Source: Taxawa tesnikishii (nom. ined.) (Eukaryota > Ascomycota > Dothideomycetes > Dothideales). From it: 64,000 bases of DNA. The notes beneath the pieces were generated by a model. That model saw only the letters and a program-made list of their open reading frames with translations. It did not search any database and was not told the DNA's origin. Position 1 is the first letter of the stretch. Every line of letters begins with the position of its first letter. The position numbers and the translations under genes were made by a program. Shown one piece after another: positions 893-59,257 of the stretch. The stretch lies in the NCBI GenBank assembly GCA_030247885.1, contig JAPDRO010000013.1:62001-126000 (forward strand), read 5' to 3'.

Positions 893-3689
893 ATGCCACC
901 AAAATCCGCGCCTCCAGCGGCGCCCCCATCTAACAAGCGCAAGCAGCCGCCCACAAACTTCTCTGGAAGACCTAGCGACCGCTCAGCCTTCTACAACAAA
1001 CGCCAAAGAATTCAACGCGATGCGCGCACGCTAGCGACGCAGACCGCCTCTCGCGCTTTCTCCAATGGGGAACTTAACGTCGACAAGTTTGTCAAAGCAC
1101 GCGAGTACGAGATCCGGGCTTTGGAAGATGGGTTGATGCGAAGTAAGCTGGCGTTGACGCAGCGCGCGTTTCAGCAGGTGCCGAGGGAGCTAAGGAGGAG
1201 GACTGCGAGCCATAATGTGAAGAAGGTGCCGAAGAGGTTGAGAAAGAGGGCGGGGAGGGAGATGATCGAGGACAACACGCCCGGGAAAGGTGGGGTAGAG
1301 AAAGGAAAGAGGAAGTTGACGCGGCATATGCGGTTGAGGCTGGAGACTGTGAAGAAGCTGAGGGCGTTGGGTGCAAAGAAGAGGAAGAAGGGCGACAATG
1401 CGGACGATGAGATCTCGAAGACAGGGGGAAATGGACATGGAGTTGGAAATGCGCACAATGCACAGGCCGCTGTGGCAGACACTGGCATCAAGACAAGGCA
1501 ACCTCGTGTGAAGAAGAATATGCTGAAACCTCCTCCTCCACCTCAGAGAAAGTTCAAAAAGCGCCAGAGGGACAAAACGTGGCTGCCGACGCATCTCTTT
1601 CATGCGAAAAGAGCACACATGACCCCGCCAAAGGATCCTCTGTGGCGCTTTTCCATTCCCTTGACGCCTACGGTCAAATCCTACAGACCCACGCACAGAG
1701 CTAGCCGTGACAGAGGCGCCGTTGCTTGGGATACCAGCTACATGTCCACCATTGGTTTGGAAGGCGTGGAGAAGAGTCTCGAGGCGTTATTGCGCGCACT
1801 CGGTGCGGGATACAATACGAAGGTAGGCTCACAGGAGCGGAAGTGGAGGAATGGAACCCGGATCTGGCAGGGCTGGCTCTACGAACGTTGCGACAGCGGA
1901 CCCGCGGTTGCAATTGCTCCTGCGATAGTGGTCTGGGAGGCTCAGAACCACGCCTCAAGGGACACGGCTCCGCCTTCTGAACCAATTCTGCAGACCCACC
2001 CTCGACGGGATCAGAAGAAGCACAAGCGCAGAATTCTGGTTCGCGTCCACCCGTCTGCGTTCTTGCAGCTGTGGAAGCAAGTGGTGCGACTGGCGAAGAT
2101 CCAAAAGCCGCAGGTGGTGGCCGAAGACCTACGTTTCGAGCTTGGGAGTATTGAGATCATGGGGCCGGGGTCTACGGAGGCGCTTCTGGGGGCTCTATGC
2201 CCCGTCCCTCCTCCCTCGCCTGAAGATCAGCAAGGGTTAAAGAATCAGCAACGTGAGGGCAGCGGAAAGTGTGATGTGAGTGTGGAAGCCACGTGGACTT
2301 CTCTTGCCGGCCTCACGGATCCCGGAACCCTGCCCGCGAACGCGTTACTCGCATTCTCGATCTCGGATCCGAGGTTGCGCCATCCACCGCGCACAATTAC
2401 CGCGCTTTCCAACGGTACTGACGGGGGCAAAGCTTATTGCAGTTGCTTGTAGACTGGCCGGCAGATAAGTCGCAACAAGCGGCTGGTGTATTCGACCGCA
2501 AGATCCGGTTGGCAAGTACGCGCTCGATGCCTAGTCAAAAGGCTATCAACCGGCGCAAGTCTCTGGCTCAGCCCGGAGCCTACCCGGATCCCGACCCCAA
2601 AGATCCGTGCATACCCGTTCTACTCTATGTCTCGTCTCATTGTCCTTCAAACCTTAGCGGCCAGTCCGGCGCCAGCGCTAGACAAGCATCCTGGACCTTG
2701 ATTCTCCCCTGGCAGACCGTTCCTACTGTGTGGTACAGTGTGATGTACTACCCCTCTCGAGCGGTGAGCAAGTGCGGCTTGGAGGACTTGATCAGCAAAA
2801 ACAGGTCGCTTTCGAAGCAGGTGTTCCGTGGTTCCCTGGGGATTACGTAGGAACTCAGGCCTGCGAAGATTGGGAGTCAAGAGAAAACCGGCAGAGGAAA
2901 GTGCAATGGGAACGCAGACCAAAGGGGAAAAGGGTCGAGTGGGAAAGCGTGCCACTGGGGCTGGGAAGGAAAGGTGAGATTGGTGTGGGGTGGGCTTGCG
3001 ACTGGAAGAGGTTGGTGGATGGGCCAGCAAAAGAGGCTTTATCACCCCTCCAGAATCCCGAGACTGAACGACCCGGCGACGTTGAACTCAGGAAGCCCTG
3101 GCACTTAACCACCTCGCTCGCCGCTAAGCTACTTCGTGGCAAATTGACTGAGAGCGGCAGGGATGGAATGGGGGATCTGGTCACAGCACTTATCACGGTC
3201 AGACTTACCCTCTTGGGTCGCGGTACCCCAGAGCCCTGTGCAAGGGTCTACCGTCTTCCTCCGGCTGATCCCAAACCTTCCAACCTATCTGAACGGAAGG
3301 ATCTGAGAGCCAGGTGGCTCGCCCTCACTACATCTCCTGCAAGCACGTCTACGAAGCAGCATCGTGCAAACAACAACAAATCCAGGAGTACAAGGGAGGA
3401 GCCAGAGCATCTCATTCATCAGCGCTTAGCTGCAGATCTGCTACAGCCAGCTGGTGCTGACGAAGGGAGTGGCTACCCTGAGGTTCCAGACGAAAAGGAT
3501 CTCGTCGGCTTTGTCACCACGGGAGAGTTTTGTCTGAGCGAGGGGAAGGGCGTGGGTATTGGCAGTCTCCTTGTGTCAAGGGTGATGCCGCGTGATTCGG
3601 AGAAAGAAGAGGATGCTTGCGGGGAGAAAAGGAAGGGGATGAAACAGAGCGTCACCTCTGCATCGTCAGAAACGCAGGTGAGAGCGTAG
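893..3689 (+). CDS. POP1: Ribonuclease P/MRP protein subunit POP1
   Basis: POP1 is the largest protein of nuclear RNase P and RNase MRP, which mature tRNA 5' ends and pre-rRNA. The N-terminal half shows the POP1 domain: a basic region with motifs such as VPRELRRRTASHN and VPKRLRKRA, then KTWLPTHLFHAKRAHM and the SYRPTHRASRDRGAVAWDTSY segment. The POPLD domain follows (DWPAD, LPWQTVPTVWYSVMYYP, FEAGVPWFPGDYVGT). The C-terminus carries GFVTTGEFCLSEGKGVGIGS, typical of the family. About 930 residues are encoded without introns. The frame changes twice, at a G5 run (2423-2427) and a C4 run (2751-2754). One added base in each gives uninterrupted POP1, so I read these as assembly gaps in an essential gene. 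ATG 893 starts the longest family-like N-terminus. Identity is firm from the motifs; the assembly explanation is inferred. Confidence 0.93.
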
Positions 3690-4974
3690 GACGACTCGCG
3701 CGGTGGGAGCTTATCTAGTGATAATGCGTCCCAAGCTGGACGAACCGCAGATTTGGCTAGGAAAAGCGCTATTCGCTTGACCGGGAACAAGGCGAGAGGA
3801 CATGTTGCAAGAGGAATGGCGAGGAGGTGGAAGGTGTTGAAGTCCACCTTACATCTGCACGCCCTTTGATCATGGTCTGGCTAAGACAGAGACAAGACAA
3901 GAGTAACGAATCAGAGTGTCGCCACGGGGTAACCGAGCAACCTCATAACCAAGCGAATACATGCTTTCGATGGAGCAGTTGCAAACAGGCTTCGAACAAT
4001 CCAAACACCGGCCACAAGATAGGGTACACCAGTTCAGTTTGGGCCACAAATGCCTACAAACAAGCCCTGGTAGGAGGCCAAGTGTGCGACGGACATGCTA
4101 CTGCTCTACAGCCACAAGCTGAGGTGGTCCGTTACTTCGCTGGGTCGTTCGCGTGTTTCATATTCTGCGGCTTGCTCCCTGTATCGACATGAAATGTCCA
4201 ACGCGTGTTTCTGCTCACTTCATTGTCGAAGCATCACTCCACATAAGCGTGAATACAAACTCCTGTTTTCGCTTCTCCGTCAAGCACAGGCAAGTCGACG
4301 TTTCCTCTCCCACTCTCAGTCTTTCAGTAGTGTTTCTTCGCTTCAACTTTGCAACGGCGTTCACACAACCGTACCGTCAGCGTCTCATACCCACTGCCAT
4401 CGACGGTTATGGCGACAAGGAGCCACACTGAACGCACGCCTCGTCCTCTTCACCGAGGTCTGTCAAGCCGTTGAAGCGGCGAACGGATCCAACGACGGCT
4501 CTGCTAAGATCCCGAGGGAGTTGCGTATCCTTGCTACCAAAGAGGAAACCATTCGCGAGGACGGCAAAGGGCGATATCGATCGCATGGAAAGGTTCGCGT
4601 TGTACAAAAAGGCGAGACCCGATGCGGCCTTTTCGTCGGACTCCACTCGCAGGCAGACGGGTCTTCCTCGGTCCTAAAGGTGCGGGATAGTAGGTCTTCT
4701 TCTGCACTGAAGGACAGTTCTCGCGTAGCAGCTCTATCAAAACCATGGGGGACGGCGAGAACAGACCACGCCACTTCGAACTCTATGCATCTATACTACA
4801 TAGTCTGTTTCGCAGCGCCCGTTGCAGGGTGTGAGGCTGGCATGCATTGTCATGCCCCTCAAGTCCGGTTCTCCGCCGTAACCGGCCCAGTATCCCCATC
4901 AGCCCACCAGGTGTGGTGTCAGAGCATGGTCAGGCCAACAGAAGCCGATATACCAACAACCGCCTCCGTAGCGC
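3690..4974. other. Intergenic region between POP1 and the ALDH gene
   Basis: A 300-codon plus-strand frame (4095-4997) and smaller frames are open here, but their composition (Ser/His/Arg/Cys-rich, no domain) looks like chance. The two flanking genes converge, so this probably holds both terminators. No tRNA or repeat recognised. Confidence 0.45.
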
Positions 4975-7416
4975 CTACACACCCAGCATCCTCCTAACCC
5001 CTCTAATCCTCCTCGCCAAACTTTCCCCATACCCCACCTCCACGACCCCCTTGCCCATCTCCCAACTCCCCGCCTTCATCGGATAATCCAACCCTCCCGG
5101 AATGCTCGTGCTGATCCAACCGGGCCATCTGTCCACGCTGACGGCTTTGGTGTTGCACAGACCCCTGAGCCCCTCCTCGCCCGCGAAGCGTCCGTATCCA
5201 CTCCCCTTGATGCCGCCAAAGGGCAATTGAACCGCGTACGTGGTCGCGAAATCGTTGACCGCGACCATTCCCGCCTGGATGTCTGCGGTGACGCGGGCGA
5301 GCGCGGCGCGCGCGGCTGGAGTCGACGTGGGCCCGAAGACGCAGGAGGCGAGGGCGTAAGGGGTCGAGTTTGCGATGTCGATGGCGTGGTCGACGTCTTG
5401 GGCGCGCATGAGGAGCGCGACGGGCGCGAAGAGCTCTTCTTGTGCGATCCGCATCGACGGTGTGACGTCGGCTAGCAGCGTAGGTTGGAAGTAGTGGCCC
5501 TTTGTCCACGTGGGATGGGCGTGGCGTTTCCCGCCGCAGACAAGCGTCGCGCCCTGCGCTACTGCGTCCGCGATCAGAGACTCGAGGCGCTCGAAGCTGG
5601 CGGCGGAGATGAGGGCGCCGACGTCGACGTCTTTTTCCGCGTCGGCGAGCGCGTTGCCGACGCGCAGCGCGGCGACCTTTGGGGTGAGGAGGGCGAGGAG
5701 GCGGGAGTAGGAGTCAGGGGTGGCGATGACGCGCTCGATGCCGATGCAATTTTGGCCCGCGGACTGGAAGACGCCGCGCATGATGATGGCTGCGACGCGT
5801 TGCATCTCGGATTCGCCAGTGCGCCGGCCGCTGGGGTCATCGATCACAACAGCAGGGTCCTTGCCACCGAGCTCGACGACGACAGGGGTGAGCGCTTTCG
5901 CGGCAGAGGTGCAGACAGCGTGGGCGACGGGGCGGGAGCCGATGAAGGTGAGATGGGAGATTCGGGGTGTGAGGTCAGATAGTCGGCAGTGGGGGGCCAG
6001 CAGGTGATTGCGTGGACAAGATTCGGGGAGTGTCCGCAGGCGGAGAGGGCGCCGTGTACGATGGAGGCGAAGTAGACAGAGGACCAGGCGGTTTGTTCCG
6101 AGTTCTTGACTACGATGGCGTTGCCTGTGAACAAGGCCGAAACGATCGGGCCTAGCAAATTATGAAACTGTGTTTGCAGTCAGCAACAGCATGCAACCGT
6201 ACTTCAGCCACTGGGACGTGATGCATACCGGATAGCTGGCACACACTGTTAGCTTCCCGCCCTCCGATCGAAGCGTCAACAGTCAACCACTTACTTCCAG
6301 CTCACGCAGGCAGCAACAACACCCAAAGGTTCCCAGCGCACCTCGTTCTTCTTGTAAAACATGAGAAAATTCGACGGTCTCTTCTCCGTGCACAAGGCCC
6401 TTTCGCCGTGCTCGATCGTCCACTTGAGCTTTTCCAATGTTACAAAAATCTCACCCAAAACGGCGTCAACTCGCGTCTTGCCCGAGTCCAGACACGCTGC
6501 GGTGATGATATCGTCTTGATGATCCAGAATGTACCTGCAGAAATTCCATCGTCAGCCTCTCGTTGATCAAACAAGAGCGGATACGGAGGCGATTGGTACA
6601 GGCTGCAAGGAGGCGAGCAGAGCGAGATGGAAGTACACAGAACGCATGGACGCATCTCCAATCCTGTGGTGAGAGACCGGGCCATAACATAAGCACACAG
6701 TAACATCACGTCCACCCGGCCAATCGCGCACACACCCCCAATCATTGCACTCCGTTAGGACTTACTTCAACAGCGTCTTTAAAACCTTCCTCCTTTCCCC
6801 AAAGCTCGTCTCCTTCCACTCCCCTTGCGCCGCTTCCGCCTTCCCAATGACTCTATCAATGCCATCTGGCGTGCTGGGGTTGATCAAGCCCAGACTCTCT
6901 CCCGTAGCCGGGGCGTAGCATCGGACTGCTGTTGAGCCTGGAACCTACGTATACAGTCAGCCGGCCAGTCAGACGAGCTATACGCGAGGACGAGCATCCT
7001 GATCCTCCAACCCAAGCCCAATCGTAACAAAAGCAGTTGCAACACGACGACTGTGAACGGTTTCACCCTCCTTCCCCCTTTCCGTCCGCCATGGAGCGCA
7101 AAACGACAGTAATGCAAAATTTCCAACAAGCGGATGAGAAAGGACAGAGACACAAGATCTCGATCTTCTCACCGTCGTGACCACCCGCCTCTTTCATCCA
7201 ACATATGAAGATAGATACTACCAACCTTCACGCTCAACTCCTCCAAGACCTCCCCTTCCACCCCGATCTGCATTGCGGAGGGGCAGGAACATGAAACGCC
7301 ACAGCTCTTTCCGAATCCGGTCTTAGCAGAAGAAACAAGAGGCCCGAAACCAGAACAGCCGCAGCAGTATACACAACCGGGCCTCCAAAAGCCACTTCCA
7401 GGCTGTAGGAAGACAT
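4975..7416 (-). CDS. MSC7: Membrane-anchored aldehyde dehydrogenase, MSC7 type
   Basis: This is an NAD(P)-dependent aldehyde dehydrogenase of the fungal MSC7 branch, which has an N-terminal membrane helix (around residues 9-28, VVYTAAAVLVSGLLFLLL) before the catalytic domain. Visible ALDH hallmarks are the WNYP oxyanion asparagine motif, the general-base glutamate in VVELGGKDP, the nucleophile in SAGQNCIG, and the EELFAPV and PFGGIKGSGYGR segments. I place five exons: 7416-7226, 6944-6766, 6534-6295, a 7-nt exon 6235-6229, and 6167-4975. Introns have GT..AG ends; the first donor is an unusual GTTGGT. Two single-base gaps, at G4 5964-5967 and C4 7252-7255, break the frame and are healed by one base each (WKGEVLEE and SHPRISHLTFIGSRP appear). 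The start MSSYSL is chosen because it leads straight into the membrane helix; an in-frame start 20 codons upstream is possible. Substrate is unknown; S. cerevisiae Msc7 is only loosely tied to meiotic recombination. Confidence 0.88.
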
Positions 7417-7973
7417 GGGGGTGGCGTTGCAGAACGCAGTGTACGACGGTAAATAGAAGGAAATTGAATGAGCCAATGAACGAACGGACGGGAAGGCTAT
7501 CTATCTTTCTTTTGTCCATCACGGAACGAATTCCGAGCGATCTCACGTGTTTTTTCTTTCTTTTTCTTTCTTGTGGCGTCCCAAAATCATCTACACAGGC
7601 GTTGGCGGGAACGACAAGATCGCCATCAGGGTAGAATGTCTCTGTACGGCGAGTGCATCTCAGCACGCCAGCAACCAACCCGCTCTTGTAAGCGTGTTTT
7701 CAGGATGCATATCTACAGTACGTGCTCCGGTAACTCTTCTTGTCAGACACGGGCACAACTATCGTCCATTCGACTACAGCGCTGATAAACGCATATACAG
7801 CATGTTTGGGCCCCAGTTCGACGTAATCTCCATTGGAAGACTTTCTTGACAAGCGGATCTTCAAAGGAGAATGCGATTGCCTTTCTGTCACGGCTTGACA
7901 TGTTGCAATCGCTTCGTTCACACAGCCGAAGGTCTGCTACAATATTGGTTTACAATGCTACAAATGTCCCCAT
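7417..7973. other. Intergenic region upstream of the ALDH gene
   Basis: No gene recognised. It contains a pyrimidine-rich stretch (about 7544-7570, CTTT-type) that could belong to the ALDH promoter, and the 3' end of the fumarase transcript. Confidence 0.5.
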
Positions 7974-9988
7974 CTATTTCTTCTCCTTGGGAGCAAGCAT
8001 GAGCTCCGGTCTCACGGTCTTGTCAAACTCCTCCTCGCTCAGAGCCTTGAGCTCCATTGCACTCTCCTTAAGGGTGATGCCCTTCTTGTGAGCGTTCTTG
8101 GCGACCTTGGAGGCCATGTCGTAGCCGATGACGGGGTTCAGGCAGGTAACAAGCATGAGTCTGGGCAATTCGTCAGTGTCCATCTCTCTTCACTCACCGA
8201 TTGGATTTCCACCGGAACGAGTCTAGGAGGCAGGGATCAAACTTACGATTCGTGCAAAAGCGCCCCGATCCTCTTCTCATCCGCCTCAAGGCCGTCCATA
8301 AGGTTCTTCTCGAAGCTGCGCATGCCGTCGCCGAGCAAACGCGACGAGTGGAGCAGGTTGCGGATCATCAGAGGCTTGAAGACGTTCAGTTCGAAGTTTC
8401 CTTGCGAGCCGGCAAAGGTCACGGCGGCCTGGTTACCGAAGACCTGTGTGCAGAGCATCGTCATGGACTCGCACTGCGTGGGGTTGACCTTGCCAGGCAT
8501 GATAGAAGAACCGGGCTCGTTCTCAGGCAGCTTGAGCTCACCGAGGCCGCAGCGGGGTCCGGAACCGAGGAAGCGGATGTCTTGTGCGATCTTGAAGAGG
8601 GAGGCGGCGAGCGTGTTGAGCTGACCGTGGGCTTCGACTATGGCGTCGTGAGCCGCCAGGGCCTCGAACTTGTTGGGCGCGGTGGTGAACTCCTTGCCCG
8701 TCATGCTGCTGACCTCGGAGGCGATGTCCTCAGCGAAACCCTTGAAGGTGTTCAGACCGGTTCCGACGGCGGTACCACCCTGGGCAAGGTAGCGCAGACG
8801 GGGAGCGCCGACTCGACGCGCTGAATGCCGTATTCGAGCTGGGTGACGTAGCCGGAGAACTCCTGGCCCAGGGTGAGCGGAGTCGCGTCCTGCAGGTGAG
8901 TGCGGCCAATCTTGATAATCTTGTCGAACTGCTCGGCCTTCTTTTGCATGGCGTCGCGCAGGCTGCGGAGCGCGGGGAGGAGGTGGTCTTCAAATTCGAG
9001 GACAGCGGCAATGTGCATGACCGTCGGGAAGGTGTCGTTGGAAGAGGCGGACATGTTGACGTGGTCGTTGGGGTGGACAGGCTTCTTGGTGCCCATGGTA
9101 CCGCCAAGGATCTCAATGGCACGGTTCGAGATAACCTCGTTGGCGTTCATGTTAGATTGTGTGCCGGACCCCGTCTGCCAAACGACGAGGGGAAGTGGTC
9201 AAGGAGCTTGAGAGATGCTACCTCGGAGGCGGCTTCCTGGATTGCTTTGCCGATCTTTGGGTCTACACGTCCAGAAAATGTCAGCTTGATCGCCCCGTTG
9301 CTGTTGTATGTTGCTGCCATTGCTCTTGGTGTATGCGATTAGACTGTTCTCGGAAGTGATGTGGCTTCCGACCCTTCAAACCCTCTTCGCTATCATGGCC
9401 CTCCTCGCCCTCCAGAACCTCTAGCACACTGCCCAGCTGTGCCGACCCGGGATAAGGAAGGGTTTGTTCCACTTCTCCATACACAACAAGCTCTTACGTA
9501 CCCAGACCGAACTTCATGTTAACAGTAGCGGCGGCGCCCTTCAAGATACCAAAGGCCTTGACGACCGGCGGTGGCATGCGGTCGTGTGGCTGATTGATCC
9601 TGAAGTTCTCCAACGACCGCTCCGTCTGAGCTCCCCAGTACTTATCACTCGGCACCTGGATCTCGCCAAAGGCGTCGCTTTCCGTCCTCGTGCTCTGAGC
9701 CATTCTTGCGGTCGTTGCGAACGTCCTCGGGTAGTAGTATGGGGTATTCAATGGCTTGCTGGCGGAGAGGGAGGAAGCAGCAGGGCGGTGGATAGAGGTG
9801 ATGTAGCTTCTGCGAGCAGCTGCGGGAGAGCTCTGGCAGCGACACGCAACTCCGAGGCCGCGCTTAGTCTTGTCGAAGCCGACCGGAACATATTGCTGGA
9901 TAGGGAATTGACGGCAATGGATTGAGAAAGATGAGAGGAGATGAGCAGATGGAAGTGGACTGGAATATTCTGGCTGCGGAGAGTTCAA
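7974..9988 (-). CDS. FUM1: Fumarate hydratase, mitochondrial (class II)
   Basis: Class II fumarase interconverts fumarate and malate in the TCA cycle; fungi usually make mitochondrial and cytosolic forms from one gene. The protein shows the class II order: [72 protein letters not shown] and the superfamily signature [11 protein letters not shown], then the C-terminal domain ending in KEKK. About 100 residues precede the catalytic core, with Arg/Ser/Ala-rich presequence character ([16 protein letters not shown]). Exons are about 9988-9502, 9262-8247 and 8160-7974; the first intron is long (239 nt). Two single-base gaps, G4 8800-8803 and G4 9189-9192, break the frame; one base in each restores [16 protein letters not shown] and [20 protein letters not shown] on this strand about 100 bases upstream (10091-10096) fits the 9988 start. 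An internal ATG ([12 protein letters not shown]) could give a cytosolic form. Confidence 0.92.
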
Positions 9989-10766: not shown

Positions 10767-11868
10767 CTATGGCGAGTCTCGTGCTTCATAATCCGCCATG
10801 TCGTGTTTCAGGACCTTTTCAACAGCACTCGCGGCACGTCCGACCTCTCCTCCCTCCTTCTTGCACGTCTGTACGCCCTTCGTAGTCGCCTCGTACATCA
10901 GCTCGCCAAAGACCTCCTTCCTTCCCTCAGCATCCTCGTACATCTCACTCTCCACGTCCCTAGGTGCGCCAAACAGATTCAGATATCCATACGGATTCGA
11001 CCTCCCGGGTATCAAATGCTGCTCCGTATGCCACATCGGAAACAGTCTGCCATCCCTCACTCCTCCATCTTCTACCGGCGAACTGAGCCCAGTCTGCAAG
11101 AACAACGCCAACGTGTTGAGTTGTTTAACGAGCAACTTACTCTCCGCACTCCCCGGTTTACCGAAACTCGTGCGCGATGCAGTCCATTTGTCCGCCCCTT
11201 CCTTCTCTTTGCGCGACCAGCCGAGCAGACTCATGAACGCCATGAGCGTCTTTACCCACCCGCCCGCAGACGCCACCAGCTCCCGCCCCGCGCTCTGCAA
11301 CAGCCAGTCCAGCACATCGAGGCTAGAGCTCCTGATCTCCACCGCCAGATGCGTGAGTCCGGCCCTGACGTACAACAACAGTTGATCCACGTGCCCTGCT
11401 ATCTCCATCTCGGGCAGTGCGCGCAGCAGTTTGAGTAAGTTCTCGCGCACGCTCTTGTTTCCGTCGAGGATCAAGGGTTGGACCTTGGGCAGGATGACGG
11501 CGACGGGCTGGGGAGGCCGGAGGTGGAGAGCCCGGTGACGGTGCTCGTGAGGTAGGAAAGCGCATCCCGGCGCTGCGAGTCGGATTTGGAAGAGACGAGG
11601 GAGAGCTGTTGCGTGAATTGGCCGGCGAGGGAGGGAGCGGTGGTGCTCAGACTCTGTTGGTTGAGGACGATGGCTGGTAGATTTCCCGTCAGCGTGACTG
11701 CACCACTCGCACCCACATCAGCTGAATGTATGCAACATGGGACTCACACTTCGCGCGGAAGCTGGTATCCGTGAGGTTGCTGGCCTTGGGCTTCGTCTTG
11801 CCGACCTTGAGTTTGGGCTTCTGGAAATCCTGTTTCTTTTCTTTCTTGCGCTTGGCGCTGGAACCCAT
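10767..11868 (-). CDS. IPI1: Pre-rRNA-processing protein IPI1 (TEX10-like)
   Basis: Ipi1 is a subunit of the Rix1 complex (Rix1-Ipi1-Ipi3), which works on pre-60S particles in ITS2 processing and export. Exon 1 (11868-11748) encodes a very basic start, MGSSAKRKKEKKQDFQKPK, then KLKVGKTKPKASNLTDTSF, the classic Ipi1 opening. A 74-nt intron (11747-11674) follows, then helical repeat sequence with SDSQRRDALSYLTS and LILDGNKSVRENLLKLLRAL. Frame is lost at G4 11510-11513; one added base gives GLPQPVAVILPKVQPLIL. Length after correction is near 340 residues, usual for filamentous ascomycetes. The start ATG is shared by the family and lies 252 bp from the divergent roadblock gene, so the two probably share a promoter region. 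Confidence 0.88.
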
Positions 11869-15964: not shown

Positions 15965-16770
15965 TCACGTCCCCAGCAAATCCCCCACGCCAACCGCCCT
16001 TTTCAAGACCACCGCTCCCTGCGGATTAAGCCGTCGATAATACCCCTCCTCCTTACTTTCCTCTCTGAATCCGCGCTTCGCATACCACAACAAGCCCTCT
16101 TCATTCGCCTCCCAGACATGCGCGCCAACCTCTTTGACACCGTACTCCTTGACTGCGCGCACCAGGATAGTCTGCAGCAGGTGCGTTGCGATACCATAGC
16201 TGCGGTAGGGCGAGAGCACGCAGAGGGTCGAGATGTACAGCATTGGCGGCGAATTCCCCAAGAGGCGGCAGCGGATACCACCCACGACGCGGCCTTGCTC
16301 TGACTGAGAGCTGCTACTCTGAGAACCAAAGACGAGCGGTTTGGTTGAGGTGGTTTGATCGTTCCAGATTGCGAGCAGGGTGATTGAGTTTGCGACTTTT
16401 TCCGTCAAGATCTCATCGTAGAACTTTGATGGGTACGGAATGGGTAGCAGGATACTGTTGAGCCTTTTGAAGGACTGGACGTTCTCTTTCGTGCAAGGCC
16501 GGAGTGTGATTCTTGGATCCAATGCTGGTGGCGCACGTGACGTGGAGGGGCCGGGGATGTGGGATCCTGGTCAAATCTGGTTGGGGGAGCCGGATCCGGT
16601 GTTCTACTTTTGCATTCCTCGTCTACGATGAAAGTGTGAAACCGCGAGGCGGAAAGCTCGCGGACGGGCTGTGGGCGCGGCGGAGGCGGTGTTTTGGCGG
16701 ACAGACGGGCTGGTGGTGGCTCCGTGATGGCGGGAGGCTTGTTGAGCCATGCTGCGATTGAAGTCTGCAT
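15965..16770 (-). CDS. NAA50: N-alpha-acetyltransferase 50 (NAA50/NAT5), GNAT fold
   Basis: NAA50 is an N-terminal acetyltransferase that associates with NatA and acetylates Met-starting peptides. The GNAT core reads ITLRPCTKENVQSFKRLNSI, LLPIPYPSKFYDEIL, GGIRCRLLG, LYISTLCVLSPYRSYGIATH (acetyl-CoA loop RSYGIA), GAHVWEANEEGLLWYAKRGF and YYRRLNPQGAVVLKR. About 85 residues precede it: MQTSIAAWLNKP, a Pro-rich stretch, and SRFHTFIVDE. The frame breaks between extension and core at G4 16553-16556; one added base joins them as TSPGPSTSRAPPALDPRITL. I choose ATG 16770 because MQTSIAAWLNKP resembles the fungal NAA50 opening; ATG 16522 would give a bare GNAT domain. It is divergent from MIC19, 236 bp away. 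Confidence 0.82.
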
Positions 16771-21546: not shown

Positions 21547-22830
21547 TCAACCATAGTTGTGTCCAATCTCCTTCTGGCCCAAAGCCTCACGCCTGGACGT
21601 GCTATTCGGATCAAAGTACGGTCTCTCGCCCAGACCAACAGCACGGTTTCCAAAACGGTCGCCCTCCCCCGGTAGTCGAATGTCGCAGAGTGGAAGACAC
21701 TGCGGTTGTCCCAGATCGCTGCACAACAACTGTGTCAGTGTTGACTTTTGCACGGCTTCCTGATCACTTACCGATGTCGTTCTTGTTCCTCCACTTGAAC
21801 CGGACTTGCAGGTCGTGGTTCTTATAGACCAGGTCCAGGAACCAGTTCAAGAGATGCTTGCTCTCCGCCTCAGTCAGGCCGTTGATGTGCTTAACGTGGG
21901 CTCCGACGGGGAAGATGCTCTTCCAACCAGTCACAGGATTCGTACGGACGACGGGGTGGATAGCCTTGAGCTCGGAACCAATATTCTCCGGGGCACCTCT
22001 GGGCTGGTTGTACAGCTGGAAGCCACCTTTGTTTGCAATATCACTGAAGAATGGCTGCGCAAACGTCGCGGTGAGTGTCTCGAGAAACCTCTGGTACGGT
22101 TCGCTGATCCGGTCATATATCTCGTAGCCCGAGGCCCACAGAGTGTCTGCGACGGAGTCTGTCACCAAATGCTCCCACAAAACGGACCCCGAAGTATCTC
22201 AGCAACGTACCACCTCCCGTTCTGGGCAGCTGCGTCAGCCTCAGACTCGTGTAGTCGGCCGGAACGGGCTCGAACGCGATGTCACTGTGCCATTGCGCCG
22301 CGCTCTGGTTCTTGTCGCTCAGCTCGTCCGGTCTTGTACGCTTGTACAGCTTGTCGTGCTGCACGGAGCTGATCGTGCTGATCTCGGGATCGGACCCGCC
22401 GAGCTCACGGTCGGAGTTCAGAATGGGGTGAATGTGCAGGCCGGAAGTGGATGGCTTGCCGGCAAGCTCGCCAAGACGCTGGATCAGTTGCTTCTGTAGG
22501 TCGTTCGTCAGGTTGTCTTGCTTCCTGAAAAGACCACGCCGCGCTGCGAGACTGGATACAAGACTCAGTAAGGATTCTCATCGCGTCTGCTGCACTCATA
22601 CTCTTGATGGCGAGGTCTCTCAGGAGTTCGTCCGCATTCGGTGCATTGAGAAATTCAACCAGGTTTGCCTCTGGAAATTCTGTTCCAATAATCGGAGTCA
22701 CGTCTTCTGACTTGTACTGGTCGAGAGAACCGGAGTACTTCAGTGGCTCTTTGCGCGGGGATGCCTTCAGCTTCAGCTGGGAGAGGTCAGCTCTGACGTT
22801 CTCCTCGACCTGTACTGCGGATGGAGGCAT
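21547..22830 (-). CDS. TauD/TfdA-family Fe(II)/2-oxoglutarate dioxygenase (JLP1-like)
   Basis: This family cleaves sulfonates such as taurine or hydroxylates other acids. Motifs are the N-terminal KYSGSLDQYKSEDVTPIIGT, ISQRGVVFFRKQDNLT (after a 50-nt intron, 22601-22552), HIHPILNSD, the iron-binding HSDIAFEPVPADY (His and Asp), RTGGDTLWASGYE (Thr/Trp region, across a 64-nt intron 22210-22147), and in the last exon the second iron His in SVFHSATFDY and the 2-oxoglutarate Arg in NRAVGLGERPYFDP. Frame is lost at A4 22528-22531; one added base gives VVFFRKQ. I choose the start MPPSAVQVEEN at 22830 because a TATATAAG lies about 100 bases upstream; the earlier frame start at 22911 is too close to it. 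The adjacent transporter gene is divergent and might import a substrate; this is speculative. Confidence 0.88.
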
Positions 22831-33303: not shown

Positions 33304-33328
33304 CTGAATATTCATTTTTATAAACCAC

Positions 33329-33969: not shown

Positions 33970-36839
<2,870 letters not shown>

Positions 36840-39504
36840 ATGGCCTTCATGACTGCAGCGGCGCCGCCCGAAGAGCCACAGACTTACTTCTACATCGGCC
36901 AACATGAGTCGGCAAGAGACACGCCTGTGTCGAGTATACTGCTCGGCCAGGCTCAAGGCGCCGGGGTAGGTGTATCTCTGGCTCTATACGCCGTCATGTC
37001 CGCTCGCTTGGGATGCTGACAGTATGGCAGTACGATATGATGACGAGTCCAATCTCTACACCTGCATATCGCGTCAAAGTCCAAGAGCTCGTCGATGACT
37101 ATCTATTGACCGTTCTCGAAGATGAAAGCGTCGATGCCGAATCTGTACCCATGCCACTGGTCCCACCGCTCACGCCAGAATACACCACCTTGACGCCCGA
37201 CGAAACTATCTCGTCTTTGTTGATGACGACAAGCCCGTGGATTGATCTCGCCTCATCGGATCCGGCCATCGCACACGTATCTCGTCAAGTCTTCAACCAG
37301 GAAGTTGCCTATGCTGCCTTTTGCGGCGTCAACAACATCATGGTTCCCGGTCCCAATTACTGGGGAGAGAAGACTGACCGCCTATGCCCGTGCCATCACA
37401 CAAGCTTTGGGTACTGGTCCATACGTCCAGCTGCAGATTGTCATGCCTATGTCTCAGGACATCAAAGAGGGCAAACCCGAGGATCCACAACACTTTGTCC
37501 ACAAGGCACGGGTTGACTATCGAGAAGACGGGGACGGTGTGAACCCCGTATCAGAGGCTTATGGCTCGTGGGACGCTTGGGATCTGATTCGTTCGACCTG
37601 TAGATATCATGGGAGGCTGTCCGTGTGTAAGTCTTTGGTCGTTCCTTCCCTTTCCCGCCATTTCCTCACTTCGCATATCTACCTTCGCTGTCATGCGTAT
37701 TCCAGGCATTACCAAACAAGCTACCTGGAGGTACACCTGCTTCAACGGATGGACGGATCGCCCACTGATGTCACTACACATAGCTGTCACAATCCCCCGC
37801 CAACTACCTCCTTTCGATGTCCAGTCGCGTTGGTTTTCTGAACCACTTCGCGCCATTATCTTTCCCGAGACTTCCTTTGTGCGCAACCAGAAGGGCTACC
37901 CAGTCCTTCCCAAATCTACCCAGGCGCTCATCACCCGATTCATGCGTTTGCGTACGCCACCTTGGATATTGCTTAGCGATGTCGGGCCGATTCCTGGTGA
38001 AGAGCAGATGCTCGCATCTCTGTCAAATTCTACATCGAACGCTGCCTTCTCTTCGGCCTCGTCAATGAGTTCGGCGAGATCCCCTTCGCCTGCACCGACC
38101 CCTGCTGAAGCCGCGCAATCTTCGCGCTTGCCGAAGAAGAAGGACCCAGCACCTCATCTGAGTTACATCAGACATCTTCAGCAGACACAATCGCCACGTT
38201 CGATGATTGAACGCTTCGCCACCGGATACCAAGACTACCTTCAATCCCCTCTTCAGCCACTGACAGACAACCTTGAGTCCATCACGTACGAAGTATTCGA
38301 AAAGATCCCATCAAGTACGAATGGTATGAGCGCGCAGTCGCCCTTGCACTCAAAGATCTATCCTCCGAGCTCAACCGACCTATTATCGTAGCAGTCGTCG
38401 GCGCCGGCCGCGGGCCCTCGTAACCCGCGTCCTACGCGCCTCCGCCAGCACCGGCGTTCCCGTCTCCGCTTGGGCCGTCGAGAAGAACCCCAACGCCTAC
38501 GTGCTCCTCCAGCACCACAACGAAACCGACCCTCTTTGGAACCGTTCTGTTCAAGTGATCAAATCCGACATGCGATTCTGGGCGGGACCTCTCACGCCCT
38601 CGGGCTCGGAAGGCAAAGTCGACATCCTCGTCTCCGAACTCCTGGGCTCCTTCGCCGATAACGAGCTCAGCCCCGAATGTCTGGACGGTGTGCAGCACGT
38701 CCTACACCCGCAGCACGGCATCAGCATTCCGACGTCGTACACCGCGCACCTAACACCCATCTCCAGCCCGCGAATTTACGCTGATATCCTCTCCCGTGGC
38801 GGCTCCGACGACCGCTGGGAGCTGCCCTACGTCGTCATGCTGCATCAGTACGACTACCTCTCCTTCGACCCCCTCGCCCCCTCTTCCATACCGGACATCC
38901 AGCAGACGTGGGAATTTACGCACCCGCTTGCCCCCGGCATACTCGCGCAATCGCAGCTGAGGCGTGGCGGCAGCGCGGCCGGCGGTGGCGGTGGCGCGGT
39001 CGGCGGAGACGGCGCCAACGAGCACAATGCGCGTTTCAGCCGGACAAGGTTCAGATGTGCAAGAAGGGGAACGTGTCACGGGCTCGCGGGGTACTTTGAA
39101 ACGGTGCTGTACGAGAGCAGAAGTGGGAGACAGGTTGAGTTGAGCACGAACCCCGTTACCATGGAAGACAAGAGTCAGGACATGATCTCTTGGTTTCCGA
39201 TTTTCTTTCCGTTGCAGGTGAGATTTAACCTTACTGTCCTGCCACCCTTTCCATTGTTCTGTACATAGCCGCAATGCCTGCGGAGATCCAAGGGGAGGGA
39301 AGAGGAAAGGCTGACGACGTGACACAGACTCCGCTCTATATTCCCGATGACGCCGAACTCGATGTCAGCATGTGGCGCCAGACAGATGACAGGAAGGTTT
39401 GGTATGAGTGGATGGTTGAGGTGTATTGCTATGTCAATGGGAAACGTATCAGGCTGGGCGCGTCGGACTTGCATTCGAGCTGGAAGAACGGGTGTTTGAT
39501 GTGA
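36840..39504 (+). CDS. PRMT5: Protein arginine N-methyltransferase 5 (Skb1/Hsl7)
   Basis: PRMT5 makes symmetric dimethylarginine on Sm proteins and histones. Exon 1 begins [20 protein letters not shown] and [12 protein letters not shown]. The TIM-barrel domain follows ([55 protein letters not shown]). An intron (about 37625-37705) precedes [36 protein letters not shown], a Ser/Pro-rich insert, [15 protein letters not shown], and the Rossmann domain with AdoMet motif VVGAGRGP and the double-E loop [19 protein letters not shown]. The beta barrel ends in a last exon after a 70-nt intron ([20 protein letters not shown]). Frame slips occur at A4 38300-38303 and C3 38415-38417 (each healed by one base), and near 37370-37382, where the shift is not a simple run contraction. 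Length near 850 residues fits fungal orthologs. Confidence 0.92.
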
Positions 39505-46313: not shown

Positions 46314-47578
46314 ATGGACCAACACTCACACATTCCTGCGTACGCTCAAGATCCGTCGCAGTACCAGCAATACCAGCAACAGACGCAGGGCTCGTACAAC
46401 ACTCACGACGACGAAGCCCTGGCCCGGAAACTGCAGGCCGAAGAGGAGGCACAGGCACGCGGCACACAGGCCCACGGCGCATACAATCCGCAAAGCGCGC
46501 CGCCCCTGCCACCACGAAACCCATCTGCCTCATCCGACCTCTCCTCGCCAATCCACTACACTCGTAATCCGCACAAGCTCGTGGCTTATCTCGTTCCCTT
46601 CCCCAAACCACGCATACACGGCGTCCCAGCAGAGGGTATACCTCCCCGATTCCTGATCTACACTCCACCACCTCCCCTCTCAAAGCGCCTCCAGAGGGCG
46701 AGAAGGAGGACAAAGTGCGCAAGCTGCAGCGAAAATGGCAAGAAGAAGTCCGCGAGGCCAAAACCTCGACGGCCAAGACCGCGAGCTGGAAGGGCGTGAA
46801 GAGCAAGGCCACGCGCGGCATTTCCAAAGCCATGTCCTACACCAAGTCCTCCAACCTCGAATTCCTCAACCGCATCGGCGGCAGCAGCGACGACCAGTCC
46901 GACAAGCACGCCGAAGACGGCCACTCCGAGGGCGAAGAAACGCACCGCACGGTCGGGCTCGAGGAGATGGTCCTCGTTTACCCGCAGAGCATCAATCAGA
47001 GCCCCGATCAGCTGAAGCAAGAGTTCGTCGACACCATGCTGCGCAGCAAGAGCAAGGCCCAGCGCGACGCCGTTCTCGCCACGGGCCTCTTGCCCGTGTC
47101 CGCCGCCATCGACATCCTAGCCATGGTCATCTGGCCCTTCGGCGGGCTCCTCGAAATCGACTCCGTCTGGGCCTACGCCAGCATCCGCGGCGCAAAGACG
47201 AGCAGGAACGTCACAAAGCGCCTGACCTCGTCCTCGCACAGCGGCAAACACGGCGATGACGACAACACCCTCCGCCTGACCTTCACGCCCTCTCCGCGTC
47301 TGGAACTCCTGGACCAATACCTGGCATCTCGATGCCATGAGCGTGACAGTAAGCTCTTCCCTTCTGCCGGCGTGCCGCCCACCGAGACGGACGTCCTCGA
47401 GGCCATCGGGTGGAGCCCGAGCCAGAACGGGACCGGAGCGACGAACTGGGAGGACGAACAGTGGGAGATCACAGAGGTCAAGGACGATCTCAAACAAGTC
47501 ATGGCCAAGGGTGCGAGGGAGTGGGATAAGTGGTGCAAGACTTTCGAGAAGGATCCGGAGAAGGCGATGAAGAAGTAG
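46314..47578 (+). CDS. Conserved fungal protein of unknown function with UIM-like motif
   Basis: The N-terminus (MDQHSHIPAYAQDPSQYQQY) is Gln-rich and contains DDEALARKLQAEEEAQARG, which resembles a ubiquitin-interacting motif. A Pro-rich linker follows, then after a one-base gap at C4 46674-46677 the protein continues KAPPEGEKEDKVRKLQRKWQ, EEVREAKTSTAKTASWKGVK, LEEMVLVYPQSINQSPDQLK, QEFVDTMLRSKSKAQRDAVL, a hydrophobic stretch ATGLLPVSAAIDILAMVIWP, FGGLLEIDSVWAYASIRGAK, and an acidic/aromatic tail ending KTFEKDPEKAMKK. This order is familiar from filamentous ascomycete proteomes, but I know no function. The hydrophobic part is long enough for one or two membrane passes. ATG 46314 sits in a good CGCCATGG context. 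About 420 residues after correction. Confidence 0.75.
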
Positions 47579-48530: not shown

Positions 48531-49552
48531 TCAAGCAGTAGCCCGAAGGGTCTCAGCAGGCGTCTCTGCGAAGGGCTGGCCGAGGCCAGGAAGATCAGGC
48601 CAGGGCTTCTTGACCGCATCCTGGATCTTGACTATGCAGCCCTTTGGTCCTGCCACCGCGCCTGTTTCAAACGCCCAGTCAGTCTCACGCACTCGCCGAC
48701 ATATCATATCCCAATTCTCCCAAAAACAGAAAGAGAAGAAGACTTTTTTACTCACCATTGACGACCACGATACCGTTTTCCTTATCCACCTTCAACACCC
48801 TCAGATTCTGCACCGTAACCTGCTCGGCGCCCATACGACCCGCCATCTTCTTCCCCGGCAGCACCCTGCTCCCACTCCCCTGTGACGCACCCGCACTTCC
48901 CATCGCGCGATGCGTCAAACTGTTACCGTGACTCGCCGGCTGCCCACCAAACCCCCACCTCTTCATCCCGCCCGCAAACCCCATCCCCCTACTCCTCGCC
49001 CTCGCGTCCACAAACTGGCCCTCAGCGAACCAATCCGCCCCAATCGCCCGCCCAACCCCGAGCAGGCCGTCGGCGCTCCTGACCCTGAACTCGCCGACGT
49101 GGCGCTTGAGCGGCACGCCCTGGGCGGCGAAGTGCCCTTGTTCGGGGCGCGAGACGTTGCGCGCCTCCTTTGTGCCGGCGCCGACCTGGACGGCCCAGTA
49201 GCCGTGCTGGGCCCGCGTCTTGTGGCTGATCACCTGCACGCGGTCGAGCTGGAGCACCGTGCAGGGCGTGCGCTTGGCCGTTGCTGGGTCGTAGATTGCC
49301 GTCATGCCCTTTTTGATCGCGAGCGCGCCCGTCCGCAGCGGGAGCGTGTACTCCTTTCGTGCGAACGCGGCCGTTTTGGAGCTGCTGAGGATGGGGAGGT
49401 CCGCGCCGTGGTTGAAGCGGTCGGGTCGCGGGGGTGGATGGATTTGATGCCCCGGATCGTGGTTCGGGGGATCGTGGTTCGGGGATCGTGAGCGAGGGGA
49501 GGAGGAACGGCGGGGGTAGCGCGGTGAGCGGCGAGGCGAGTTTAGGCGGCAT
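48531..49552 (-). CDS. MRPL9: Mitochondrial large-subunit ribosomal protein uL3m (yeast MRPL9)
   Basis: uL3m is a core protein of the mitochondrial 54S/large subunit near the peptidyl transferase centre. After the presequence (MPPKLASPLTALPPPFLLPS) come HPPRPDRFNHGADLPIL, RTGALAIKKGMTAIYDP, TPCTVLQLDRVQVISHKTRA, GYWAVQVGAG, EFRVRSADGLL and the L3 signature RGMGFAGGMKRWGFGGQPAS with HGNSLTHRAMGSAG, GSRVLPGKKMAGRMGAEQVT and VLKVDKENGIVVVNG. One intron splits VVVNGAVAGPKGCIVKIQDA near 48660-48756. Two one-base gaps occur near the start, at G4 49481-49484 and G5 49430-49434; healed, they give TIRGIKSIHPPRPDRF. The first lies in one of two adjacent 15-bp repeats whose sister copy has five Gs. Confidence 0.93.
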
Positions 49553-53882: not shown

Positions 53883-56158
53883 ATGCCGTCCCAACTTCTA
53901 GCAGCTTGCCTTGTGCTGCTGTCCCTAGGCAAAGCCGCGCTTGCGACCCCGAGCACTAACCAGCTCGGTGATATCAGCATCTTGGCCGCCGATGATCTGA
54001 TCAGTATGTTGCTTCACTGTTCGTGTCGTCTCTCGATCAATACTGACCCGGCCATGTATAGCCACGGATAACAACAAGACGAGCGCTGCTCTTTTGTTGA
54101 GCTCTCCGGTGACCTTATCAGATGCGTTGACGGCATGCGAAGCACTGAGCGAGGATCTGTGGTCTCCTTCACCCCTTCCTTTCGATGCCGGCTTGAACAG
54201 CTCGCTCGCCTATGAAGTATACAGCGGACGTGTCGCGGGTGACCAGCTTTTCTGGGTCGGGCAAGCTCGGTCCAAACGCAGTGCCCCATGGAAAGCACCG
54301 GCTCACCCGGGATGGGGACCTCCTGCACACCCCAAGCCCCCCAAGGACCTCACCAGGCGCCATCTTGCCAAGCACTGGATGTCAACGGAAATCTTCACCA
54401 GGTGAGCTGCAGCGAAAAGCTGCCTACCCTGTGCTCCCAGACTGCTCCCGCTTCGAACATCACGTTTGCGAACACTTCCGCTCTGTATCAGGTTGCCCAG
54501 ACAGTCGGCGCTCAGACGCTCGTTGGGTACAGAGACTTCTTAACCTTCCGTTTCATGGGAGTGCGGTTTGCAGCTGAGCCCGAGAGGTTCACGTACTCTT
54601 CGGTATACGAAGGCACCGGCACCAACAATGCTCTTAGCCCGGCGCCAGAATGCCTGACCACCCCTAACAACGGCAGCACTGACTGCTTGTTTTTGAACAT
54701 CTGGACTACCAATTTGCCCGCTCCGTCCGCCAAGAAGGATCTTAAGCCTGTCATGGTATACATTTACGGAGGTGAGTCTTCCACATGGTGGAAGAGGCGT
54801 GCACTGAGCTGACGGATGTATCAGGTGGGTTCACATCAGGTTCCGCCAGCAACCCTACCAACGACGGTGGTAATCTTGCTGCCCGCGGCGACGTCGTCGT
54901 GGTCGATATCGCATACCGTCTCTCAACTCTCGGTTTCCTCGCCCTCAACGATGGCGTACATAACGGCAACTACTGGATCTCCGACCTGATCTCCGGCCTG
55001 GAATGGGTTCAGAAGAATATCGAGGCCTTTGGCGGCGACCCATCGCGCGTTACCATCTTCGGAGAATCTGCTGGTGCTGCATCCGTCAACGCTCTGATTG
55101 CTTCGCCCAAGGGCAAGGGGCTCTTCCACGGAGCCGTCATGCAATCTGATTACTACCAGCCCTACATCCCTATTGCCAAGGCGATCAATCAGTCCACTGC
55201 CCCGATTCTCAACGAGACAGGCTGTGCTACTGCTGTGGACCAGCTCGCGTGTCTGCAAGCTTACAACGCCACTGCATTGATCAACCTGAAGACCATTTTT
55301 AAGTGAGTTTGCATCTACCAGAACGATATTCCATACTGACGTGTATGCAGCTACCCCGTCATCGACGGTACGTACCTCGTGTCCTCCTTCATCGATCTCA
55401 ACAGCACGACAACCATCACCAACCGGGTCCCCATCGTGATGGGCGTCAACCGCGACGAAGGCGGCGTCCTCGGTACCGTTTTCCCGACCACCAACCTCAC
55501 AACCGGCATCCTCGACCTCGCCGCCAGCGAAGGCGCCAACGCTTCTGCGATTCTCTCCTCCGGCCTCTTCCCACTCGGCACCAGCCAGTCCAACAACGCC
55601 ACGCTCGACGTCTTCAACACGACTACACGCATCTACACCGACGAGTCCTTCCGCTGCTTCAACCAGTTCGAAGCCTACGCCGGCGTCCAAGACGGCGTGC
55701 TGCCCAACATCTGGTTCTACGAGTTCAACCGCACGTACCAGGACCCCGGGTACGATGCCAACCACGTGTGCGGCGCTCCCAAGACGCCCTCGCATCCCAA
55801 CGGCGACCCCTCGCTCGAGTACTTCAAGTGCCACGCCGGCGATCTCGCGAACACGTTCGGCAATGTCGCGCGCGTCGGGTTTCCGGATCGCGATGGCTTG
55901 GATGCGCCGTTTGGACAGTTGGTGACGGATTATTGGACCACATTTGCGAGGAACTTGAACCCGAATCCGGATATGGGGTATCTGAAGGCGAGGGGATACT
56001 GGAATACGATCAACCAGATTCAGGTTTCGGGAGCGTGGGAGAAGGTGGATGCGGGTAACCCGAGGATGATGGAGTTGCAGTGGAACTCGTTGATGGTGCC
56101 GTTCAGGGATGTGGCACAGTGTGCGGTCCTGGGGTATCCGTTGGACTTCCTTCTCTGA
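53883..56158 (+). CDS. Secreted type-B carboxylesterase/lipase with N-terminal extension
   Basis: A secreted alpha/beta-hydrolase. The signal peptide is MPSQLLAACLVLLSLGKAAL. Before the catalytic domain lies an extra region of about 160 residues (DNNKTSAALLLSSPVTLSDA, LTACEALSEDLWSPSP, then CSEKLPTLCSQTAPASN) with paired cysteines, seen in a subset of fungal type-B esterases. The catalytic part has GVRFAAEPERF, DCLFLNIWTTN, the oxyanion region VMVYIYGGGFTSGSA, nucleophile Ser in IFGESAGAASVNALIASPKG, acid Glu in GVNRDEGGVLG, and a likely His in FKCHAGDLANTFGN. Introns fall near 54004-54061, 54772-54824 and 55303-55351. Frame is lost once, at C4 54284-54287, in the extension; one base joins it. 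Many N-glycosylation sequons. Substrate unknown. Confidence 0.88.
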
Positions 56159-56498
56159 CCGTCGGTGGTATGTTGAGTCAAGAGAAAGGCACACCAAAGC
56201 TATAACCGGAGCAGTTGCTGTGTATATAGTCACTAAGCTGTACGGAATCAATCTTCCTGGATCTTCCCTTGTGCAGCCGAGGTGCCGTGCGGTCCAGGGA
56301 GCAACAATTGTGCCTGCTTCTTCTGAGCAAACTCATTCTTCGCATCAAGCTGGGCTCTCCATTCCCTGAAAGCGTCGACGTGTTGCGTAGGACATGGATA
56401 TGAATTTCGAAGACATCCTACTCCGAGATTCCGGGAGTCTGCTTGCCTGAATCAGGGGGTCTTACTAGGTTTGCAGCAGCCCAAACCTCGGGAGACAA
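56159..56498. other. Intergenic region between convergent genes
   Basis: 340 bases, 3' ends of the carboxylesterase and HET genes; nothing recognised. Confidence 0.45.
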
Positions 56499-58382: not shown

Positions 58383-58801
58383 ATCGGCATTCGCAGCAGG
58401 TGGTATAGGACGGTACTGCCAGGAAATTTCTGCCAGGAAGTTAAGTGTTGATGTGTGCTCGAAGTAGTTCGTACAGTTAAGTACTCGAGTCGAAAGTCAC
58501 AAAGTGAGGGGTCCATGGGCTGAGGGCGGCTTTGAGGAGGCGCAGCACTTACCCGTGTACCAGTACCAGTCAATGAGAGGATGCATTGCGCTGCCTCGAC
58601 AATGTTCGCAGAACAAGTCAGACACGCGGATATTAATGTAGATGACCGAAATCTGTCAACTTCAATTGTGTTGTAGAGGCGTCGATGTCCTCGGTATATC
58701 AGAGAATTGCCTATGCATAAATATCCCAAACCTAACGCCAAGACATGATAGCAAGCAACCTTCTCTGCTCAACCGCGTCCTATATTCACAGCCTTACAAT
58801 G
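58383..58801. other. Intergenic region
   Basis: About 420 bases between the HET gene start and the CP-motif gene; nothing recognised. Confidence 0.45.
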
Positions 58802-59257
58802 CTACCTAGTGTCTCGGTCCATGCTGACCAGTAACAGGGCACACGGCATCCTCCGCCGCCTTCTCAACACTCGGGTGCTGGTGCACCTTCCCTTGTGATG
58901 ACCCAGCGTAGCCTTAGTAATCGGGCAGACATCGCCATCCTTGCTCTGCGCAGTGCTCGGGTGGTCCGGTGGCAGGATGGACGAAACGGGACCGACGATG
59001 GGGCATATGCCCTCGTCGAGAGCCTCGTTCTCGGGCTGGTGGATGACGTCCTTGAGTGCAGGGCAGGACTCGGCGTCGCTGAGGTTCTTGGACGAGGCGT
59101 TGGGGATGCCGGGGTGCTTGGAGAGGTTGTGGTGGTGGGCTGTGCTGGCGTTGGTGACGGGGCAGACGAGGTCCGGTGCGTTCATGTCGAAGTCGGGGTG
59201 AGAGGGTGGGAGGATGGTGTTGGTCGTGCCGACCACGGGGCAGACTTTGGAGGCCAT
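58802..59257 (-). CDS. Small duplicated protein with six Cys-Pro (heme-regulatory-like) motifs
   Basis: I know no characterised ortholog. The protein starts MASKVCPVVGTTNTILPPSH, then LVCPVTNASTAHHHNLSKHP, DAESCPALKD, then a second round: GICPIVGPVSSILPPDHP, DVCPITKATLGHHKG, and, after a one-base gap at C3 58890-58892, KVHQHPSVEKAAEDAVCPVT and QHGPRH. Each half has CP(V/I)VG, ILPPxHP, VCP(V/I)T, HH, HP and a third CP, so the gene is an internal tandem duplication of about 65 residues. CP dipeptides followed by V/I are the consensus of heme-regulatory motifs, where Cys binds heme; the HH pairs could also bind metal. No signal peptide, no membrane helix, about 145 residues. Heme or metal binding is an inference from the motifs alone. 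Confidence 0.72.
   Translation of the reverse strand: MASKVCPVVGTTNTILPPSHPDFDMNAPDLVCPVTNASTAHHHNLSKHPGIPNASSKNLSDAESCPALKDVIHQPENEALDEGICPIVGPVSSILPPDHPSTAQSKDGDVCPITKATLGHHKGRCTSTRVLRRRRRMPCALLLVSMDRDTR

What the first reader, a model, noticed from the sequence alone, without database searches (positions are those of the whole stretch)
2423..58892. Systematic one-base contraction of homopolymers across most genes
Frames of at least 14 genes are broken by exactly one missing base, nearly always in a run of 3-6 identical bases: POP1 2423-2427 and 2751-2754, MSC7 5964-5967 and 7252-7255, FUM1 8800-8803 and 9189-9192, IPI1 11510-11513, NAA50 16553-16556, TauD 22528-22531, PRP43 34046-34048, PRMT5 38300-38303 and 38415-38417, the 46.3-kb gene 46674-46677, MRPL9 49430-49434 and 49481-49484, the esterase 54284-54287, and the CP protein 58890-58892. 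All shifts are losses, most turn an expected run of five into four, and all are healed by one base to give family motifs. Essential genes are hit. This matches long-read consensus under-calling and means frames here should not be used to call pseudogenes without correction.
Basis: partly seen in the sequence, partly recalled or inferred. Interest (0 to 1): 0.8.

Follow-up and report, generated by a model that had tools for sequence, protein, structure and literature searches.

The report
Assembly errors breaking fungal gene frames
Several fungal housekeeping genes in this window are each one base short at short runs of one repeated base, which looks like a well-known sequencing and assembly error, not biology, so the broken frames should not be read as dead genes.

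Summary
The window (C5:62001-126000 of a 29.4-Mb, 34-contig eukaryotic assembly with fungal genes) does hold one-base frame breaks in housekeeping genes. All 7 are minus one; boundaries taken for introns in the same test have 44 or more extra bases. Seven more sites rest on frame continuity only. Three are unsupported (MSC7b, NAA50, esterase). FUM1 and PRMT5 are each broken twice and no second copy was found. The one homolog-tested break outside the window, in a CCT-family gene on C1, again lies at a run of four G. Homopolymer under-calling in a long-read assembly without accurate polishing is the best reading, with a published fungal precedent (PMC7500977). Against parts of it: the shortage of long runs is not diagnostic beside finished E. 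coli and T4; tested breaks outside are rarer (1 in about 28 kb, a lower bound, against 7 in 11.6 kb); and no reads were available. Ordinary artefact; low interest.

The parts
8800..8803 (-). FUM1 frame break a, minus one, in a run of four
   Evidence: d=-1 on fumC_II profile TIGR00979 (-4, the same modulo 3, on PF00206); best switch against fumarate hydratase chain 5d6b falls inside this run
9189..9192 (-). FUM1 frame break b, minus one, in a run of four
   Evidence: d=-1 on fumarase chain 1yfm; best switch against 6ebt falls inside this run
38300..38303 (+). PRMT5 frame break a, minus one, in a run of four
   Evidence: d=-1 on PF05185
38415..38417 (+). PRMT5 frame break b, minus one, in a run of three
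   Evidence: consecutive residues 370 and 371 of 4gqb share base 38417
5964..5967 (-). MSC7-like aldehyde dehydrogenase frame break, minus one, in a run of four
   Evidence: d=-1 on PF00171
2751..2754 (+). POP1 frame break b, minus-one class, in a run of four
   Evidence: d=+8 on PF08170, the minus-one class with three residues of alignment slack
34046..34053 (-). PRP43 frame break near the C terminus, minus one; position within this stretch not resolved
   Evidence: one switch against 6qid scores best, not exactly at the named run 34046-34048
34089..34146 (-). PRP43 likely true intron of 58 bases just upstream of that break (not an error)
   Evidence: GTGAGT donor at 34146, CTGAC, CAACAG ending at 34089
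2423..2427 (+). POP1 frame break a, frame continuity only
   Evidence: upstream POP1_N frame and downstream POPLD frame differ by minus one; no intron of right phase found
11510..11513 (-). IPI1 frame break, frame continuity only
   Evidence: three-frame view; Ipi1_N domain lies downstream
22528..22531 (-). TauD-like dioxygenase frame break, frame continuity only; a second frame change seems to lie within about 50 bases upstream
   Evidence: three-frame view, TauD domain
46674..46677 (+). 46.3-kb gene frame break, frame continuity only
   Evidence: three-frame view; no Pfam match in either piece
49430..49434 (-). MRPL9 (uL3m) frame break a, frame continuity only
   Evidence: homology to mitochondrial L3 chain 6ywe begins at this run and runs downstream; three-frame view
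49481..49484 (-). MRPL9 frame break b, frame continuity only, upstream of the homology
   Evidence: three-frame view
58890..58892 (-). CP protein frame break, frame continuity only
   Evidence: three-frame view

Best explanation
The assembly's consensus sequence is one base short in some homopolymer runs, mostly of G or C and mostly written as four, because the reads or the consensus step under-count run length and no accurate short-read or HiFi polishing corrected it. In the living fungus these genes are most likely intact. Shown: one-base losses at seven tested places, three of them localised exactly to runs. Inferred: that sequencing platform and polishing are the cause.
For: Seven of seven tested breaks are minus one: six by residue numbering and PRP43 by a weaker fit. 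In the same table 22 of 23 piece boundaries outside the window, and the esterase break inside, have d of 44 to 141, as introns would, so the two classes do not overlap (splice sites were read only for the esterase, TRS85 and PRP43). Exact localisation to runs for FUM1a, FUM1b and PRMT5b, while runs of 3 or more cover 13.5% of the window's bases and runs of 4 or more 3.8%. FUM1 and PRMT5 are each broken twice; all 3 PRMT5 pieces in the assembly are the window's. Of 8 Lyase_1 pieces 3 are the window's, the one complete match is argininosuccinate lyase, and the other 4 score 26-68 bits against 154-160 for the two main window pieces. A CCT-family gene on C1 has a minus-one break overlapping a run of four G. 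Precedent: in nanopore-only Drechmeria coniospora assemblies fewer than one-sixth of 305 conserved single-exon genes were predicted full length at first, mostly from homopolymer errors (PMC7500977, passages and part 1 of the Results).
Against: No reads, coverage or platform record could be seen. The shortage of long runs is not diagnostic: the window has 0.63 of expected G/C runs of 5 and 0.09 of those of 6 or more, but E. coli K-12 has 0.32 and 0.23; A/T runs of 6 or more are at 0.38 in two AT-rich pieces here and also in T4. HSP90 is unbroken over its domain. Counts of overlapping open frames are mixed: over four settings minus-one leads outside (26 to 11 at best, p 0.01-0.17) but not in the window (4 to 8 at the same setting). 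In the precedent paper, errors left after long-read polishing were more often over-long runs, the opposite sign.
Confidence: 0.9

Rival explanations
1. The genes are real pseudogenes: the strain has lost them or carries intact copies elsewhere.
For: The frames are broken as written.
Against: No second PRMT5 in the assembly and no second fumarase found. Five unrelated tested genes are hit, each break a one-base loss, with the rest of the matched domains conserved, unlike decay by mixed lesions. FUM1 and PRMT5 each carry two losses.
Confidence: 0.05
2. The breaks are introns or gene-model misreadings.
For: Some breaks in these genes do look like introns: PRP43 34146-34089, the esterase near 54776 and 55303, and TRS85 in L029.
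Against: The numbered breaks have d of -1 (or +8 for POP1b), not 44 or more. No intron of the right phase was found over any of the 17 runs, four of them not properly testable by that script. Three sites (MSC7b, NAA50, esterase) could still be this.
Confidence: 0.03
3. The breaks are real and are read through by minus-one ribosomal slippage on short runs, across many genes.
For: All tested shifts have the same sign and lie at or near short runs.
Against: Solved homologs are single chains that run through these stretches. In 21 CCT, kinesin and HSP90 loci elsewhere one such site was seen (a lower bound). No common motif beyond the run was noticed; this was not tested formally.
Confidence: 0.01

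Closest known systems
Homopolymer-length errors in nanopore-only fungal assemblies (Drechmeria coniospora, PMC7500977)
   Same: Frame breaks in conserved genes, mostly at homopolymers, sometimes two in one gene; fewer correct genes where there are more runs of 4 or more (passages and part 1 of the Results seen).
   Different: There both insertions and deletions occurred, and after long-read polishing over-long runs were commoner; here every tested shift is a loss. The platform of this assembly is not known to me.
Systematic nanopore indel errors described for Homopolish (PMC8011154)
   Same: Residual indels, mainly in homopolymers, that shift reading frames; bacterial, viral and fungal genomes treated (passages seen).
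   Different: Its drafts hold both insertions and deletions; only losses were seen here.

Membership tests
Long-read consensus homopolymer error | Single-base length change relative to homologs | tested here: met
   7 of 7 tested sites minus one: 6, PRP43
Long-read consensus homopolymer error | Change lies inside a homopolymer | tested here: met
   Exact for 3 of 4 sites fitted (FUM1a, FUM1b, PRMT5b); PRP43 not resolved
Long-read consensus homopolymer error | Spread over unrelated genes, including core genes without a second copy | tested here: met
   Five genes; no second FUM1 or PRMT5 found; a CCT-family gene on C1
Long-read consensus homopolymer error | Similar rate across the whole assembly | tested here: inconclusive
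   1 break in 27.7 kb outside (lower bound) against 7 in 11.6 kb inside; G/C-run density differs and the window was chosen for its breaks
Long-read consensus homopolymer error | Long runs depleted beyond finished genomes | tested here: inconclusive
   G/C runs: E. coli K-12 comparable. A/T runs of 6 or more: window 0.55, E. coli 1.12, T4 0.38. A/T runs of 5: AT-rich pieces 0.57, T4 1.24. No fungal yardstick was at hand
Long-read consensus homopolymer error | Reads show longer runs than the consensus | not testable with these tools
   No reads available
Programmed minus-one frameshifting | Break conserved at the same place in the genes of relatives | not tested
   Only protein chains of homologs were seen; they run through these stretches, but their gene sequences were not seen

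The most novel reading that the evidence does not exclude
The runs are correct as written and the fungus reads many housekeeping genes by routine minus-one slippage on four-base runs, an expression rule not known in any fungus (from recall).
Probability: 0.01. Interest if true: 0.9.

Novelty: not a real feature. Interest (0 to 1): 0.1.

Why it matters
It is a caution for anyone using this assembly. Automatic annotation would probably split or truncate FUM1, PRMT5, POP1, PRP43 and others and could report gene loss that did not happen. It also shows which tests help: residue numbering on homologs separates one-base losses from introns cleanly, whereas run-length statistics alone do not settle it.

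Tried and rejected
Run-length truncation as proof of under-calling: set aside after the E. coli K-12 and T4 controls; the first counts without controls looked stronger than they are. What is left of it is mixed: A/T runs of 6 or more are at 0.55 in the window and 0.62 in 17 outside pieces against 1.12 in E. coli, but 0.38 in T4; A/T runs of 5 are at 0.57 in the two AT-rich pieces against 1.24 in T4.

Coding-frame decoding by composition had low sensitivity (one search gave 14 minus-one against 4 plus-one in 17 outside pieces, three AT-rich pieces skipped, and 3 against 3 in the window). Overlapping-ORF counts at four settings: outside 42-29, 26-11, 18-8 and 11-6 for minus-one against plus-one; window 14-15, 4-8, 1-3 and 0-1. 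They are confounded by introns and by two close minus-one shifts that add up to plus-one. TRS85 in L029 looked like a minus-one pair but is probably an intron.

Aldedh and Sugar_tr genome searches scored only 11 of 48 and 9 of 323 candidates, favouring unbroken matches, so their bases were left out of the rate; three Aldedh boundaries are in the table. The outside base count includes some overlap and intron bases. It is a lower bound on breaks: 7 of 10 kinesin and 2 of 10 CCT-family loci begin well inside the profile with no earlier piece reported, and the suspicious overlapping frames of L028, L036 and L037 are not counted.

The PRP43 donor printed was an artefact of my script (word not found); one search read it properly.

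rRNA control: the Rfam search failed by machine error four times, and a universal SSU word typed from recall had no match. Organism name: one paper search on contig number and size found no paper.
Full report
What was checked. The window is contig C5:62001-126000 of an assembly of 29,367,862 bases in 34 contigs. Pfam finds POP1 domains, an aldehyde dehydrogenase, Ipi1_N, a GNAT acetyltransferase, a DEAH-type helicase, PRMT5 domains, ribosomal protein L3, a carboxylesterase, Het-C, Lyase_1 and TauD. PDB hits and NCBIfam name the lyase fumarase, and PDB hits name the helicase PRP43. The labels NAA50 and MRPL9 fit PDB hits; MSC7 was not tested beyond the family. All 17 named runs are at the stated places: 12 of length 4, 2 of length 5 and 3 of length 3. 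The list holds 12 genes, not 14.

Are the breaks real one-base shifts? For each break I took the two open pieces apart, aligned each to a numbered homolog or profile, and computed d, the base gap minus three times the residue gap. PRMT5a, PRMT5b, FUM1a, FUM1b and MSC7a give -1; FUM1a gives -4 on PF00206, the same modulo 3. POP1b gives +8, the minus-one class with three residues of slack (built). PRP43 was fitted instead: after a likely intron at 34146-34089 the upstream frame reads IAP, seven residues, then F, the same spacing as chain 6qid, and the next frame continues that chain one base early. That is weaker, because the upstream stretch is short. In the table, 22 of 23 piece boundaries outside the window and the esterase break inside it have d of 44 to 141, as introns would; splice sites were read only for the esterase, TRS85 and PRP43. 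The fitted switch falls exactly in the named run for FUM1a, FUM1b and PRMT5b; for PRP43 it falls a few bases off. So 7 of 17 sites, in five genes, are minus one.

The other ten sites. POP1a, IPI1, TauD, the 46.3-kb gene, MRPL9a, MRPL9b and CP show a protein-like frame that continues one base early, seen by eye. A consensus scan found no intron of the right phase over any of the 17 runs, but for MSC7b, TauD, PRP43 and CP its 90-base open-frame rule was not met, so there it says nothing. TauD seems to have a second frame change within about 50 bases upstream. MSC7b has no open frame pair under that rule. NAA50 homology begins downstream of the named run. The esterase run lies about 260 bases upstream of the first aligned domain residue, and the two breaks inside that gene carry GTGAGT donors and look like introns. 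These three are unsupported.

Why artefact. Fumarase and PRMT5 each carry two losses. All three PRMT5 pieces in the assembly are the window's. Of eight Lyase_1 pieces three are the window's fumarase, the one complete match elsewhere is argininosuccinate lyase, and the other four score 26-68 bits and were not named. A fungus without working fumarase would be badly impaired (recalled). The one homolog-tested break outside the window, in a CCT-family gene on C1, is also minus one and overlaps a run of four G. Published nanopore-only assemblies of a fungus behave in a like way: fewer than one-sixth of 305 conserved single-exon genes were predicted full length at first, with errors mainly in homopolymers (PMC7500977, passages and part 1 of the Results). 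Two further papers, seen in passages only, describe homopolymer indels that shift frames in nanopore assemblies (PMC8011154; PMC9453082).

What speaks against parts of it. G/C runs of 5 and of 6 or more are at 0.63 and 0.09 of a first-order expectation in the window and at 0.56 and 0.11 in 17 outside pieces, but E. coli K-12 has 0.32 and 0.23. A/T runs of 6 or more are at 0.38 both in two AT-rich pieces and in phage T4. In the other direction, A/T runs of 6 or more are at 0.55 in the window against 1.12 in E. coli, and A/T runs of 5 at 0.57 in the AT-rich pieces against 1.24 in T4. So the run-length argument does not settle the matter without a fungal yardstick. HSP90 is unbroken over its domain. 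Window gene bodies hold about twice the G/C runs of four per kb (5.27 against 2.46), the window was picked because breaks were seen, and the outside count is a lower bound, since 7 of 10 kinesin loci begin well inside the profile and suspicious overlapping frames in L028, L036 and L037 are not counted. The difference may thus be selection, run density, missed breaks or uneven local quality. "Systematic across most genes" is shown for part of this window, not for the genome. In the precedent paper the errors left after long-read polishing were more often over-long runs, the opposite sign.

Verdict. It is a known kind of error, not a biological feature.

Noticed in passing
L037 2199-9999 (C3:500001-510000): Six long overlapping open frames on the minus strand, each step minus one; the fifth carries a GT4-like glycosyltransferase domain, the first four have no Pfam match, the sixth was not scanned. 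A likely multiply broken long gene on another contig.
   Followed up: partly
L028 3-9999 (C5:50001-60000): About 10 kb of overlapping long open frames on the minus strand (up to 1410 aa; three steps minus one, one plus one) with no Pfam match in the five pieces scanned.
   Followed up: partly
L036 3636-8148 (C1:2000001-2010000): A NUP188 open frame with two further open frames upstream, each step minus one; the upstream pieces have no Pfam match.
   Followed up: partly
L032 and L034 (C5:500001-510000, C1:100001-110000): 10-kb pieces of 26% and 23% GC while 17 of 20 sampled pieces average 53%; they resemble RIP-type AT-rich blocks (the RIP label is recalled).
   Followed up: no
window 49460-49490: Two near-identical neighbouring copies of a short repeat in the 5' part of MRPL9, one with a run of four and one with five of the same base.
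   Followed up: no
window 60400-62292: A long unbroken Het-C open frame (630 aa, profile 120-555 of 561) among broken neighbours.
   Followed up: no
G000 whole assembly: A universal 18S word (from recall) has no exact match, so rDNA may be missing from the assembly or altered; the Rfam search that would tell failed by machine error.
   Followed up: partly
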